Positions 8,290 through 17,115 of a stretch of 64,000 nucleotides of DNA are shown piece after piece; the first letter of the stretch is position 1; each line of letters starts with the position of its first letter. The notes beneath the pieces are model-generated. The model was not told the origin of the DNA. It did not search any database and saw only the letters and a list, made by a program, of their open reading frames with translations. Source of the DNA: a bacterium. GTDB lineage: Bacteria > Elusimicrobiota > Elusimicrobia > Elusimicrobiales > UBA9959. The stretch is from NCBI GenBank assembly GCA_021811185.1, contig JAJZPL010000012.1, positions 1 to 64,000 on the forward strand. Direction: 5' to 3'. The position numbers were made by a program, and so were the translations under genes.

Positions 8290-9234
8290 ATGACGGCAAC
8301 AGCGGCTCCCACTGGTATTTTTCCCAAATCGTTGTTTTTCGCCCTGTCGGTCTTTTGTTTTACCCCTTATGCCAGCCCGCCGCTGGCCCTGGCTCTGGGG
8401 CTGGGGCTGGCGCTTACTATAGGGCACCCGTACCGGACCCACAACAGCAGGGCGGTCAAATACCTGCTGCAGGCCTCGGTGGTGGGGCTCGGTTTCGGCA
8501 TGAACTTCGCCGAGGTGGTCAAAGCCGGCAGGACCGGGGTCGGCGTTACCGTGGTTTCCATAACGGCCACGCTGGCGGCCGGCGTGCTGCTCGGCAAACT
8601 CCTGTCCGTGAAACGCAATACCTCTTACCTTATAGCCTCCGGCACCGCCATCTGCGGCGGCAGCGCCATAGCGGCCATAGCCCCCATCCTGCAAGCGGAC
8701 GACCAGGAGATCTCGGTGGCGCTGGGGACCATCTTCATCCTGAACGCCGTGGCCCTGTTCATTTTCCCGCCCATAGGCCACGCGCTCTCCCTGACCCAGA
8801 CCCAGTTCGGGTTCTGGTCCGCCATAGCCATCCACGACACCAGTTCCGTGGTGGGGGCGGCGGCCCGGTACGGCGCGGAAGCGCTGAAGATAGCCACCAC
8901 GGTGAAACTGACCAGGGCGCTGTGGATAATCCCGCTGTCGCTGGCGGCCGCGCTGGCCGTAAAGAATAAAAGCGCGAAGGTCGCGGTGCCCTATTTCATC
9001 TTCGCCTTCGTGCTGGCCTCCATGGCCGTTACGGCCCTGCCGGTTTTTTCCGGCGCCTATGCCTTTATCGCGGACTACGCTAAAAAAGGCCTTACCTTCA
9101 CCCTGTTCCTCATAGGGGCCGGGCTTTCAAAGAAAACGATACAGCAGGTCGGGTTCCGGCCTATCCTGCAGGGCGTGGCCCTGTGGCTGCTGATCTCCGC
9201 GGGTTCGCTGCTGGCCATTAAAGGCGCGTTCTAG
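8290..9234 (+). CDS. YeiH-family putative sulfate exporter (UPF0324)
   Basis: LGLGLALTIGHPYRTHNSRAVKYLLQASVVGLGFGMN, SGTAICGGSAIAAIAPIL, SAIAIHDTSSVVGAAARYG. Confidence 0.92.
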   Translation: MTATAAPTGIFPKSLFFALSVFCFTPYASPPLALALGLGLALTIGHPYRTHNSRAVKYLLQASVVGLGFGMNFAEVVKAGRTGVGVTVVSITATLAAGVLLGKLLSVKRNTSYLIASGTAICGGSAIAAIAPILQADDQEISVALGTIFILNAVALFIFPPIGHALSLTQTQFGFWSAIAIHDTSSVVGAAARYGAEALKIATTVKLTRALWIIPLSLAAALAVKNKSAKVAVPYFIFAFVLASMAVTALPVFSGAYAFIADYAKKGLTFTLFLIGAGLSKKTIQQVGFRPILQGVALWLLISAGSLLAIKGAF

Positions 9235-9263
9235 CGCCCGCGCGGCCGCGGGCCGCCGCGGTG

Positions 9264-9293
9264 TTGACAACTAGTTTAGTATCTGCTAAACTA
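9264..9293 (+). promoter_or_regulatory. Promoter with embedded operator palindrome for the ArsR-type repressor
   Basis: TTGACA (9264-9269)-N17-TAAACT (9287-9292); perfect inverted repeat TAGTTTAG-N6-CTAAACTA (9272-9293), ATG at 9300. Confidence 0.8.
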
Positions 9294-9299
9294 CTATAC

Positions 9300-9602
9300 A
9301 TGAACAAAGCGGCGGCCGTAAAAGCGGATGGAATAGCGGGGATGCTTTCCTGCATTGCGCATCCCTCCCGCCTTCTGATAATATGTATGCTGTTGAAGAG
9401 GGAAATGTTCGTGCAGGAGCTGATAGAGAAGCTCGGCACGACCAAGGGGAACATCTCGCAGCATCTGCGCGTGCTCGCCGACCGGGAGCTGATCCAGAAG
9501 CGCCGCGACGGCAACCGCATCTTCTACAGCATCAAAGACCCCAAGCTGGCCGAACTTATAGCCAGGATAAAGAAACTTTATTGCCCGAATTTGGATATCT
9601 AA
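9300..9602 (+). CDS. ArsR-family repressor, YgaV/BigR/SqrR-like persulfide-sensor type
   Basis: AHPSRLLIICMLL, GNISQHLRVLADRELIQKRRDGNRIFYSIKD, C-terminal KKLYCP; matches remembered YgaV architecture (two Cys positions). Confidence 0.85.
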   Translation: MNKAAAVKADGIAGMLSCIAHPSRLLIICMLLKREMFVQELIEKLGTTKGNISQHLRVLADRELIQKRRDGNRIFYSIKDPKLAELIARIKKLYCPNLDI

Positions 9603-9608
9603 GTCGGT

Positions 9609-9866
9609 ATGGAGGATACAATGGACCTTGCAAACCTGAAAGCTGATAAGACCGTGGACGCGCGTTCGATGGCCTGCCCCGGGCCCCTGCTGGAAGCCAA
9701 GAAAGGCATAGGCGGCATTACCGTGGGCCAGGTGCTGGAGATCCAGTCCGGCGACAAGGGCAGCCGCGAGGACATCCCCGCCTGGTGCGCCAAGACCGGC
9801 CACGAGTACCTGGGCGTGGCGGAGCACGACGGCTACGAGAGCCTTTTCGTAAGGCGCAAGAAATAA
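9609..9866 (+). CDS. tusA: TusA-family sulfur carrier protein (start could be 9621)
   Basis: VDARSMACPGPLLEAKKGI (CPxP sulfur-carrier motif), 80-85 aa. Confidence 0.92.
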   Translation: MEDTMDLANLKADKTVDARSMACPGPLLEAKKGIGGITVGQVLEIQSGDKGSREDIPAWCAKTGHEYLGVAEHDGYESLFVRRKK

Positions 9867-9906
9867 TAAGCGATATTTTTGGCCGCATGCGGTGAGCCCA
9901 GGTGGT

Positions 9907-14915: not shown

Positions 14916-15244
14916 AGAAAGCGGGAATAATACGCTGCCGGCAGACCGAGGATATCTGCCCCGGCACTACGGACTTTAAATTCGCCCAGTTGGGCAAGGG
15001 CGCTTTCGCGGAGACGGGGCCGGTAGAGATAGTCGGTTTCGTTTCCTGCGGCGGCTGCCCCGGCAAGCGGGCCGTGATCCGCGCGGAAGAACTGGCGGCG
15101 CGCGGCGCGGAGGTGATAGCCCTGGCCTCGTGCGTGAAGAACGGCAACCCGCTGTGCTTCCCCTGCCCGCACGCCGACACCATGAAAGTGGCGATAGAGA
15201 AGAAGCTCGGAGATAAAGTGAAAATTCTGGATTATACGCACTAA
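14912..15244 (+). CDS. CGGC domain-containing protein
   Basis: KKAGIIRCRQTEDICPGTTDF..FVSCGGCPGKRAVIRAEELAARGAEVIALASCVKNGNPLCFPCP. Confidence 0.88.
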   Translation: MKKAGIIRCRQTEDICPGTTDFKFAQLGKGAFAETGPVEIVGFVSCGGCPGKRAVIRAEELAARGAEVIALASCVKNGNPLCFPCPHADTMKVAIEKKLGDKVKILDYTH

Positions 15245-15255
15245 AGGAAAATAAT

Positions 15256-15807
15256 ATGGCTGACATCAAAGAACTGGAAGCGCAGATAGCGGCCCTTAAA
15301 GCCGACGTGGACACCCTCAAGGCCAACGCGCCCGAGGACAAGCTCTCGATGGTCGTCATGAGCGGGGACATGGACAAGCTCCTGGCCTCCTTCATCATAG
15401 CCACCGGCGCGGCCGCCATGTTCGAGAAGGTAGTGATGTTCTTCACCTTCTGGTCCATCCCGGCGCTGAAGGATCCCAACAAGACCGTTTCCAAGGACAC
15501 GGTCTCCAAGATGTTCGAGCTTATGCTCCCCAACGGCGCTGACGGCACCAAGCTGTCCCAGATGAACATGGGCGGCATGGGCAAGGCCATGATAAAGTCC
15601 ATCATGAAGAAGCACAACGTGATGACCCTCGGCCAGCTTATGAAGGTGGCGGCGGATTCGGGCGTGGAGATCTACGTCTGCCAGATGAGCATGGACCTGA
15701 TGGGCTACAAGATGGAAGAATTGATAGACTATCCCAACCTCAAGAGCGCGGGCGTGGCCAAGTTCCTGGCCGAAGCCGGCACCAGCAAGTCGTCGCTGTT
15801 CATTTAG
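15256..15807 (+). CDS. DsrE/DsrF-like (DsrE2) sulfurtransferase family protein
   Basis: MVVMSGDMDKLLASFIIATGAAAMFEKVVMFFTFWS, GVEIYVCQMSMDLMGY. Confidence 0.88.
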   Translation: MADIKELEAQIAALKADVDTLKANAPEDKLSMVVMSGDMDKLLASFIIATGAAAMFEKVVMFFTFWSIPALKDPNKTVSKDTVSKMFELMLPNGADGTKLSQMNMGGMGKAMIKSIMKKHNVMTLGQLMKVAADSGVEIYVCQMSMDLMGYKMEELIDYPNLKSAGVAKFLAEAGTSKSSLFI

Positions 15808-15829
15808 GCGCGGCGGCGGTAAAATTCGG

Positions 15830-15861
15830 GCGGGCGTTATAAGAAGCATTATAACGCCCGC
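15830..15861 (+). terminator. Terminator hairpin after DsrE2
   Basis: GCGGGCGTTATAA / TTATAACGCCCGC 13-bp perfect stem, AT-rich downstream. Confidence 0.7.
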
Positions 15862-15924
15862 TTATATTTATATAATAGTTACATAAGCATAGGCCGTCCG
15901 CGTGCTTAAATAACAGGAGGCAAA

Positions 15925-17115
15925 GTGAAAAAAGCATCTTTATTAGCGGCTCTTATCGGTTTAAGCGCCAGCATGGCTTACGCCACCAACGGCGACAACA
16001 TGATCGGCGTGGGCCCCACGTCCCGCTCCATGGGCGGCACGGGCATAGCCGCCCCGCAGGACGCCATCAGCGCCATCTTCTCGAACCCCGCTGCGCTCTC
16101 GCAGCTTAACGGCTCACAGTTCAACTTTGCCGGCACCTACTTCGCCCCTTCCGTAAAGGCGGAGGTTAAATCCGGAATGCTCGGTAACTGGAAGGACGAC
16201 AGCCAGGACGCTGCCTACGCCATTCCGGCCATAGGTGTCGCCACCCCCATAAACGACAAGATGAATTTCGGCATAGCCGCTTACGGCGTGTCCGGCATGG
16301 GCGTGGACTACCGCAATGAAGACCCCAAGAACACCAATACCAAGGTCTCCGTGATGAAGTTCGTGCCGGCCGTTTCTTACAAGTACGGCGCTTTCTCTTA
16401 CGGCGCCGGCCTTGATATAGACTACCAGGCCGCCGACTTCGGCGCCGGGCTTTCCCATAACTACGCCATAGGCGCGCGCCTCGGCGCCGGTTACGAATAC
16501 CAGAAATGGAACTTCGGCCTGACCTATGTTACGCGCCAGACCGTGGATCACAAGCGCATCTATGACTTCGACGGCGTCGGTCTTACCGGCACCTTCGACG
16601 GCACCTATGACGACCTGAAGCTCGCGAACCCGGCCCAGTACGGCGCCGGCGTTTCTTATAAGGGCCTTGATAAATGGGTGCTCTCCGCCGATGTGAAGTA
16701 TATAGACTGGGCCAATGCCGACGGCTACAAGGACTTCGGCTGGCAGAGCCAGACCGTTTACGCCCTTGGCGTGCAGAACCAGACCACCGACAAGCTGACG
16801 CTGCGCGCCGGCTGGAACTACGGCAAGAACCCGCTCAAGAAGCACGACAACTTCAACGCCGCAGGGACCACCAACATTCAGGGGAAGACCATGAGCACTT
16901 TCGGTTACGAATACTTCCGCCTGATCGGTTTCCCCGGTATCGTAGAGAATCACCTTACCCTCGGCGCGGGTTACGAATTCTCGCCTAAATTCACGCTGAA
17001 CCTGGGGTATAAGAGAGCCTTCGCCAACACGATGACCGAGCACTCGGCCGACGGTTCCATAAAGTCTACGCTGTCCGAGGACGCTTTCGACCTTGGTCTG
17101 AACTTCAAGTTCTAA
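15925..17115 (+). CDS. OmpP1/FadL/TodX-family outer membrane transport protein
   Basis: Signal peptide; NGDNMIGVGPTSRSMGGTGIAAPQDAISAIFSNPAAL signature; terminal aromatic residue (NFKF). Confidence 0.9.
   Translation: MKKASLLAALIGLSASMAYATNGDNMIGVGPTSRSMGGTGIAAPQDAISAIFSNPAALSQLNGSQFNFAGTYFAPSVKAEVKSGMLGNWKDDSQDAAYAIPAIGVATPINDKMNFGIAAYGVSGMGVDYRNEDPKNTNTKVSVMKFVPAVSYKYGAFSYGAGLDIDYQAADFGAGLSHNYAIGARLGAGYEYQKWNFGLTYVTRQTVDHKRIYDFDGVGLTGTFDGTYDDLKLANPAQYGAGVSYKGLDKWVLSADVKYIDWANADGYKDFGWQSQTVYALGVQNQTTDKLTLRAGWNYGKNPLKKHDNFNAAGTTNIQGKTMSTFGYEYFRLIGFPGIVENHLTLGAGYEFSPKFTLNLGYKRAFANTMTEHSADGSIKSTLSEDAFDLGLNFKF

What the first reader, a model, noticed from the sequence alone, without database searches (positions are those of the whole stretch)
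8290..17115. Sulfur-relay/Qmo-like electron-transfer module under a likely persulfide-sensing repressor
Seen: consecutive same-strand genes encode a YeiH-type exporter, ArsR repressor, TusA (CPGP), MvhD-like protein, two HdrA-type FAD/4Fe-4S proteins, a small wHTH protein, a QmoC-like 4Fe-4S/membrane fusion, a CGGC protein, DsrE2, then a FadL-type porin. Established: TusA and DsrE2 are sulfur carriers/transferases, and QmoABC links quinones to sulfur reactions in sulfate reducers. Inference: no AprAB, Sat, DsrAB, LbpA or HdrB lies in the window, so this may be a Qmo-like complex tied to persulfide relay rather than canonical sulfate reduction or sHdr sulfur oxidation. A stand-alone MvhD-like subunit replaces the MvhD domain normally fused in QmoB.
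Basis: partly seen in the sequence, partly recalled or inferred. Interest (0 to 1): 0.85.

Follow-up and report, generated by a model that had tools for sequence, protein, structure and literature searches.

The report
TusA-linked Qmo-like sulfur electron-transfer operon
This uncultured Elusimicrobiota bacterium carries an operon, shared with anaerobes of at least six other phyla, that joins sulfur-carrier proteins to a membrane electron-transfer complex under a persulfide-sensing-type repressor, probably letting cells use sulfane sulfur as an electron sink without any sulfate-reduction machinery.

Summary
The genes are real and in the order described. The operon proper is ArsR-TusA-MvhD'-HdrA1-HdrA2-wHTH-QmoC'-CGGC-DsrE2-FadL (9300-17115); YeiH is not part of it. 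It recurs in 17 congeners. A TusA-MvhD'-HdrA1-HdrA2-wHTH-QmoC' core recurs in Bacteroidota, Desulfobacterota, Chloroflexota, Chlorobiota, Myxococcota and Aminicenantes (TusA beside 53 of 57 best QmoC' loci). It is not canonical QmoABC: QmoC' and HdrA2 fall outside the AprAB-linked clades, several Desulfobacterota carry both types, and the host genome lacks Sat, AprA, DsrAB, DsrC, YedE and HdrB. It probably belongs with the uncharacterised 'type II' Qmo proteins (PMC10504309). New here: MvhD' has lost most [2Fe-2S] cysteines and gained an invariant C-x-V-C; the wHTH protein is fused to HdrA2 in some Bacteroidales, so it is probably a subunit; an NAD(P)H-oxidoreductase domain sits inside HdrA1 in Petrimonas; and a perfect operator (TAGTTTAG-N6-CTAAACTA) before ArsR also fronts octaheme-tetrathionate-reductase/YedE and FadL operons in congeners. 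Most likely function, inferred: reduction of TusA/DsrE2-bound sulfane sulfur to sulfide with quinol, ferredoxin or NAD(P)H electrons. The window's operon is a mosaic: MvhD'-to-wHTH was replaced by a divergent version.

The parts
9264..9299 (+). Promoter (TTGACA-N17-TAAACT) with a perfect palindromic operator TAGTTTAG-N6-CTAAACTA at 9272-9293 between/over the -35 and -10; message probably leaderless
   Evidence: sequence, promoter scan, conserved in congeners, 0.08 expected by chance in the window; present at 0-1 mismatch in all 15 module-bearing congeners searched, host included
9300..9602 (+). ArsR-family repressor with the BigR/SqrR/YgaV cysteine pair (ILC/IIC ... YCP), start corrected to ATG 9300
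   Evidence: PDB matches YgaV 3cuo, SqrR, BigR 3pqj; cysteines kept in all 16 orthologues
9609..9866 (+). TusA sulfur carrier, CPGP motif
   Evidence: PF01206 71.4 bits; motif Cys23 in 62 of 62 module TusA
9901..10037 (+). Intergenic hairpin, 21-nt arms, between tusA and the mvhD-like gene
   Evidence: (z -6.1); not in any other fetched locus (100)
10051..10449 (+). MvhD': MvhD/FlpD-fold protein lacking most [2Fe-2S] cysteines, with invariant C70, C106, C109 (C-x-V-C)
   Evidence: PF02662 58.9 bits; invariants in 38 of 38 (62); fold 5odc_D TM 0.84 (79); C[TS]VC in 119 of 120 best hits
10446..11744 (+). HdrA1: QmoA-sized HdrA-type FAD/4Fe-4S protein; carries an inserted GltD/NfnL-type NAD(P)H domain in Petrimonas and others
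   Evidence: ligand cysteines 49 of 49 (77); insertion
11746..13521 (+). HdrA2: HdrA-type protein with N-terminal HdrA domain and C-terminal 2x[4Fe-4S], no MvhD domain
   Evidence: tree far from canonical QmoB
13526..13807 (+). Winged-helix protein, probable complex subunit (fused to HdrA2 in seven Bacteroidales loci)
   Evidence: fusion, conservation, model winged helix pLDDT 87.5
13809..14915 (+). QmoC': HdrC-type 2x[4Fe-4S] domain fused to a membrane domain (conserved H211, H337; 8 cluster Cys plus C200)
   Evidence: tree
14912..15244 (+). CGGC protein, accessory; present in part of the genus (a small DsrE stands there in some congeners)
   Evidence: PF08821 96.7 bits; found in 9 congener loci; small DsrE
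15256..15807 (+). DsrE2-type sulfurtransferase with catalytic-type Cys142
   Evidence: PF13686 155.6 bits; 3pnx; Cys142 in 41 of 41 (84)
15828..15863 (+). Terminator-like stem-loop (15 pairs) between dsrE2 and fadL
   Evidence: count of such sites in the region is not above shuffles
15925..17115 (+). FadL/TodX-type outer-membrane channel, conserved 3' neighbour
   Evidence: PF03349 (91); 15 congener loci; directly under an ArsR and related operator in G017 (95)
9750..13830 (.). Xenologous block: tusA 3' end to start of qmoC, divergent from congeners while flanks are not

Best explanation
A membrane-anchored HdrA-type flavo-iron-sulfur complex (HdrA1, HdrA2, MvhD', wHTH subunit, QmoC') exchanges electrons between the quinone pool (QmoC') and sulfane sulfur carried as persulfide on TusA and DsrE2. 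Shown: gene content, order, cross-phylum conservation, ligand cysteines, separateness from canonical Qmo, absence of sulfate/sulfite enzymes, the operator and the wider sulfur regulon. Inferred: FadL admits a hydrophobic sulfur form; DsrE2 and TusA carry the sulfane sulfur in the cytoplasm; MvhD' with its new C-x-V-C/Cys70 set is the docking or reaction site that releases sulfide; electrons come from quinol and/or ferredoxin (NAD(P)H in the fused versions). Net effect: sulfane-sulfur reduction as an electron sink in an anaerobe, switched on when persulfide relieves the ArsR repressor.
For: TusA beside QmoC' in 53 of 57 loci, with DsrE2 or small DsrE in 38; YedE plus DsrE-like genes (and a second TusA in L109) in the same operon in Chloroflexota; no Sat, AprA, NIR_SIR, DsrC, YedE or HdrB in the host genome; QmoC'/HdrA2 outside canonical clades; canonical and non-canonical QmoC both present in G062, G063, G067, G125, G147 and G172, with the TusA-Hdr operon itself read in G062, G063, G125, G147 and G172; two sensing-type cysteines and a conserved operator; the same or a related operator with an ArsR paralogue precedes octaheme tetrathionate reductase, cytochrome b and YedE in G012 and G018, an octaheme-type or YedE gene in G017 fragments, and FadL in G017; invariant MvhD' cysteines; NAD(P)H domain within HdrA1 of Petrimonas, a genus reported to reduce elemental sulfur (PMC9695182); fermentative hosts such as Ancylomarina (PMC11129491).
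Against: No biochemistry. Direction is not fixed by sequence: Qmo-type complexes have been proposed to run either way. The catalytic step is unassigned, since HdrB, the disulfide-reducing subunit of Hdr, is absent. Some Desulfobacterota carriers also have the canonical AprAB-Qmo set. Petrimonas sulfur reduction has not been tied to this operon. The MAG is 93.6% complete with 5.2% contamination.
Confidence: 0.5

Rival explanations
1. Same complex run oxidatively: it takes electrons from TusA/DsrE2 persulfide (or from a sulfane-sulfur adduct) into the quinone pool, as part of sulfur oxidation or disproportionation.
For: TusA/DsrE feed oxidation in rDsr and sHdr systems (family knowledge); YTD genes join the operon in Chloroflexota and YTD is linked to disproportionation; Qmo in disproportionators has been proposed to act in reverse (PMC4911364); several Desulfobacterota carry it.
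Against: No DsrAB, Apr, Sat, HdrB or DsrC in the host to make or dispose of sulfite; many carriers are Bacteroidota, some described as fermenters; the NAD(P)H domain in HdrA1 fits an electron source at least as well.
Confidence: 0.22
2. A redox-balancing (electron-bifurcating or confurcating) quinone:ferredoxin/NAD(P)H complex in which TusA/DsrE2 serve mainly sulfur homeostasis, Fe-S or thiolation supply, and are regulated together with it against sulfane-sulfur stress.
For: HdrA paralogues are known bifurcation sites (family knowledge); related QmoC/HdrA/MvhD sets next to NiFe hydrogenase lack TusA (L085, L090); ArsR of this type controls sulfide detoxification elsewhere (family knowledge).
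Against: TusA adjacency is near universal in this clade (67), and the MvhD cysteine change is seen in the TusA-linked loci but not in L085/L090.
Confidence: 0.15
3. A decayed or host-specific variant of canonical QmoABC serving an AprAB encoded elsewhere.
For: QmoC-like domain architecture; NCBIfam qmoC match.
Against: AprA and Sat absent in the genome, and no genome of the 36 relatives searched reaches the AprA cut-off or has Sat; phylogeny; canonical and module QmoC coexist as paralogues.
Confidence: 0.02

Closest known systems
QmoABC, canonical (type I) quinone-interacting complex of sulfate reducers
   Same: Two HdrA-type flavoproteins plus an HdrC-membrane fusion; no HdrB
   Different: AprAB-linked; QmoB carries a fused MvhD domain; QmoC scores 367-525 bits on the qmoC model against 119.7-124.8 here; separate clades; no TusA partner in the two loci read
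'Type II' QmoABC of Neukirchen et al. 2023 (PMC10504309; Ammonifex, Vulcanisaeta and organisms without Dsr/Apr)
   Same: QmoA/B closer to HdrA than to canonical QmoAB, also found without Apr/Dsr, function declared unknown
   Different: TusA, DsrE2, wHTH and MvhD' linkage not mentioned in the passages read; their sequences could not be compared here
YTD cluster (YedE-TusA-DsrE) of sulfur disproportionators (PMC9751629, PMC12998232, PMC13293266)
   Same: TusA and DsrE sulfur relay; YedE joins the operon in two Chloroflexota loci
   Different: YTD as described has no Hdr/Qmo genes; host genome has no YedE
sHdr sulfur-oxidising Hdr-like complex
   Same: HdrA plus TusA/DsrE neighbours
   Different: sHdr needs HdrB-type subunits and LbpA; no HdrB here
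HdrA-MvhD/HdrABC of methanogens (5odc and related)
   Same: HdrA clusters and the MvhD fold
   Different: HdrA functions split over two proteins, no HdrB, MvhD ligands changed, membrane domain added
SqrR/BigR/YgaV persulfide-responsive ArsR repressors
   Same: Both reactive-type cysteines and closest solved relatives
   Different: Below NCBIfam BigR cut-off (75.9 of 155 bits); sensing not tested

Membership tests
canonical QmoABC | QmoC above the curated NCBIfam cut-off (300 bits) | tested here: not met
   124.8 bits; best in genome 119.7
canonical QmoABC | QmoC and QmoB inside the AprAB-linked clade | tested here: not met
   canonical QmoC one side of a 98/99 branch; QmoB split by a 100/100 branch of length 1.61
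canonical QmoABC | QmoB with a fused C-terminal MvhD domain | tested here: not met
   HdrA2 ends after 2x[4Fe-4S]; MvhD' separate
canonical QmoABC | AprAB and Sat in the genome | tested here: not met
   (genome 93.6% complete)
type II QmoABC | QmoA/B closer to HdrA than to canonical QmoAB | tested here: met
   HdrA2 tree; scores against HdrA2 model; HdrA1 judged by scores only
type II QmoABC | Groups with Ammonifex/Vulcanisaeta sequences | not testable with these tools
   named sequences not reached
sHdr / HdrABC | HdrB-type CCG protein | tested here: not met
   only CCG protein is GlcF-type beside GlcD
sHdr | LbpA lipoate-binding protein | not tested
   not searched genome-wide
YTD cluster | YedE with TusA and DsrE | tested here: not met
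   no Sulf_transp in G000; TusA and DsrE2 present
TusA | CPxP sulfane-binding motif and family profile | tested here: met
DsrE2 | Pfam DrsE_2 and conserved Cys | tested here: met
DsrE2 | NCBIfam DsrE2 equivalog cut-off (210 bits) | tested here: not met
   59.7 bits: family resemblance, not an equivalog
MvhD/FlpD | fold | tested here: met
MvhD/FlpD | canonical [2Fe-2S] cysteines | tested here: not met
BigR/SqrR/YgaV repressors | two reactive-type cysteines and an autoregulatory palindrome | tested here: met
BigR/SqrR/YgaV repressors | persulfide-dependent release from DNA | not testable with these tools
   needs a binding assay

The most novel reading that the evidence does not exclude
A widespread, previously unnamed class of quinone-linked sulfane-sulfur oxidoreductase: an HdrA-type complex without HdrB in which a re-tooled MvhD subunit (Cys70 plus C-x-V-C) handles persulfide delivered by TusA/DsrE2, giving fermentative Bacteroidota, Elusimicrobiota and others a cytoplasmic sulfur respiration independent of Psr, Dsr, Apr and sHdr.
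Probability: 0.35. Interest if true: 0.87.

Novelty: new variant of a known kind. Interest (0 to 1): 0.7.

Why it matters
How many fermentative anaerobes reduce elemental sulfur or polysulfide, and what the 'type II' Qmo proteins do outside sulfate reducers, are open. A syntenic operon that may answer both, with a defined regulator and operator and an invariant new cysteine set, makes the questions testable in a cultured genus (Petrimonas) and would add a marker for sulfur cycling in genomes lacking dsr and apr.

Tried and rejected
Canonical Qmo membership: rejected. sHdr/HdrABC: no HdrB. YTD membership of the window operon: no YedE in the genome. YeiH as part of the operon: not conserved. wHTH as second regulator: less likely, because fused to HdrA2, though its model resembles ArsR-type winged helices. 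Module QmoC as a strictly exclusive clade: rejected by the AU test (p 5e-8); hydrogenase-linked and QmoAB-linked QmoC lie among them. Literature searches for a name or earlier description of the TusA-MvhD-HdrA-HdrA-QmoC operon found none in the open-access library, but the library lacks most subscription journals. A paper search tying FadL to sulfur uptake gave nothing direct. Rfam: no hits in the window.
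Full report
OBSERVATION. Best matches are PF01022 ArsR, PF01206 TusA, PF02662 FlpD/MvhD, HdrA models for both flavoproteins (439 and 460 bits to HdrA2 NF040770), qmoC NF038018 at 124.8 bits (cut-off 300), CGGC, DrsE_2 and FadL. ArsR begins at ATG 9300; the apparent N-terminal extension is a conserved promoter.

CONTEXT. The genome is an Elusimicrobiota MAG (3.09 Mb, 93.6% complete, 5.2% contamination; close relatives are named Elusimicrobia GWF2_62_30, UBA11697 and others). 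DsrE2 occurs in 18 of 32 genomes of the genus, the host included, and the ArsR-TusA-MvhD-HdrA1-HdrA2-wHTH-QmoC-(CGGC)-DsrE2-FadL order is kept wherever the contig is long enough. YeiH is not found there. In a sample of 201 genomes of the phylum, full-length QmoC' is confined to one family (10 genomes, genera g1, g10, g11 and g14).

CROSS-PHYLUM MODULE. A named-genome scan with a QmoC' profile gave 79 loci. Among 57 with enough upstream sequence, TusA is adjacent in 53, MvhD' in 50, HdrA1 in 56, HdrA2 in 57, wHTH in 50, and DsrE2 or a small DsrE in 38 (recruitment was by similarity to the window QmoC, so this describes this clade, not all QmoC). Of the four exceptions two are NiFe-hydrogenase-linked (L085, L090), one is a Methanoperedens locus (L105) and one a Bacteroidota locus (L065). 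Hosts are Bacteroidota (Petrimonas, Ancylomarina, Paludibacter, many Bacteroidales), Elusimicrobiota, Thermodesulfobacteriota/Desulfobacterota, Chloroflexota, Chlorobiota, Myxococcota and Aminicenantes; a Planctomycetota-labelled locus (L053) may be a binning error. In Chloroflexota L109 and L107 the operon continues into DsrE-like genes and YedE (L109 also a second TusA), i.e. YTD genes. A Crp-type regulator stands divergently in the Bacteroidota locus examined (53), and similarly sized divergent genes recur in many Bacteroidota loci (21).

NOT CANONICAL QMO. In G062 and G063 canonical aprBA-qmoABC and the TusA-linked operon coexist. Across 119 Desulfobacterota-phylum genomes, QmoC scores fall into separate ranges: canonical 367-525 bits in 38 genomes, a second full-length type at about 180-213 bits, and lower-scoring, mostly HdrC-like hits at 108 bits and below. 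Not all of the second type are TusA-linked: L183-186 and L189 pair such a QmoC with QmoAB-like proteins. Trees put 17 canonical QmoC on one side of a 98/99 branch and canonical QmoB, with the L183-type, behind a 100/100 branch of length 1.61 from module HdrA2 and HdrA. The QmoC of TusA-linked operons is not a strictly exclusive clade (AU p 5e-8). An HdrA1 tree was not built. Neukirchen et al. (PMC10504309) report type II Qmo closer to HdrA and present without Apr/Dsr, function unknown; this operon probably belongs there, but their sequences could not be compared.

HOST PATHWAYS. The genome has no NIR_SIR protein, no AprA (34), no ATP sulfurylase (60; none in 36 relatives either), no DsrC (57), no YedE/YeeE (56), and its only CCG protein is GlcF-like beside GlcD (35, 42). 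These are negative results in a 93.6% complete genome, but for Sat, AprA and DsrC they repeat across the congeners searched.

ANATOMY. HdrA1 keeps two ferredoxin clusters and the HdrA signature cysteines in 49 of 49 sequences; HdrA2 keeps the N-terminal set, the signature set and two C-terminal clusters in nearly all of 64. QmoC' keeps eight cluster cysteines, C200 (77 of 77), H211 (76 of 77) and H337 (76 of 76). MvhD' has the MvhD fold (profile E 1e-21; model pLDDT 80.8, TM 0.84 to 5odc_D), but the N-terminal and GC cysteines of the canonical protein are gone and Cys70, Cys106 and Cys109 are invariant in 38 of 38; 119 of 120 best database hits carry C[TS]VC and none the canonical motifs. The hydrogenase-linked L085/L090 keep the canonical set. 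The wHTH protein is a winged helix and is the C-terminal part of HdrA2 in L058, L072, L080, L095, L099, L103 and L115. In L099 (Petrimonas) and L084 HdrA1 carries a GltD/NfnL-type NAD(P)H oxidoreductase domain inside its ferredoxin region (family-tested on L099).

REGULATION. The ArsR best matches YgaV, SqrR and BigR structures and keeps both reactive-type cysteines in all orthologues. A perfect palindrome TAGTTTAG-N6-CTAAACTA lies over the promoter. A genome search found it at 0-1 mismatch in all 15 module-bearing genomes among the congeners searched; in 13 it lies directly before the module ArsR, and in G010 and G018 the module is split over contigs (compared). A perfect copy in G012 and a 2-mismatch copy in G018 precede an ArsR paralogue, an octaheme tetrathionate-reductase-family cytochrome (588.9 bits, cut-off 375) and YedE-type proteins, one with a rhodanese domain, with a cytochrome b in G012 (families scanned on the G012 copy). 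In G017 2-mismatch copies precede an ArsR with an octaheme-type gene, and another precedes ArsR-FadL. This places FadL and the module in a sulfur-intermediate regulon.

MOSAIC. Nucleotide identity of the window to three congeners is about 80-90% outside and about 56-77% (locally 84%) within 9750-13830, while the congeners keep about 80-90% to each other throughout. By gene, MvhD', HdrA1, HdrA2 and wHTH are 70, 67, 55 and 43% identical to congeners that are 91, 92, 89 and 83% identical among themselves. A 98% match to HdrA2 from another assembly (P0001) argues against a chimeric assembly. The block was replaced by a divergent homologue whose nearest known relatives are P0002-P0004.

MECHANISM. 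I commit to sulfane-sulfur reduction (confidence 0.5): FadL for entry, DsrE2/TusA as carriers, HdrA1/HdrA2/QmoC' for electrons from quinol and ferredoxin (NAD(P)H in the fused forms), MvhD' as the docking or reaction site. Direction rests on host physiology (Petrimonas reported to reduce sulfur, PMC9695182; fermentative Ancylomarina and Labilibaculum, PMC11129491) and on missing sulfite-handling enzymes; it is inference. The oxidative reading remains open at about 0.22.

Noticed in passing
window 9901-10037: Strong intergenic hairpin (21-nt arms, fold z -6.1) between tusA and the MvhD gene, in the replaced block and not seen in any other fetched locus; MITE-like or regulatory.
   Followed up: partly
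window 9750-13830: In-operon xenologous replacement of MvhD' to wHTH with flanks unchanged.
   Followed up: yes
L233 6278-12924, L234 4574-11201: Congener operon: the same or a related operator and ArsR in front of octaheme tetrathionate reductase and YedE-rhodanese genes (with cytochrome b in L233); the 493-aa and 234-aa proteins there match no Pfam family.
   Followed up: partly
L183-L186, L189: A further Qmo type in Desulfobacterota: canonical-like QmoA and QmoB (fused MvhD) paired with a QmoC of the non-canonical clade, without TusA.
   Followed up: partly
L085 and L090: Bacteroidota HdrA-QmoC-HdrA-MvhD set beside NiFe-hydrogenase-like genes, with canonical MvhD cysteines: a likely quinone-linked hydrogenase/HdrA complex.
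   Followed up: no
L099 4875-7703; L084 818-3535: HdrA1 with a GltD/NfnL-type NAD(P)H domain inserted in its ferredoxin region.
   Followed up: yes
window 8290-9234: YeiH-type protein directly upstream, not conserved with the operon; separate gene.
   Followed up: partly
window 20522-21225: DUF134 regulator followed by a dinitrogenase FeMo-co-like protein.
   Followed up: no
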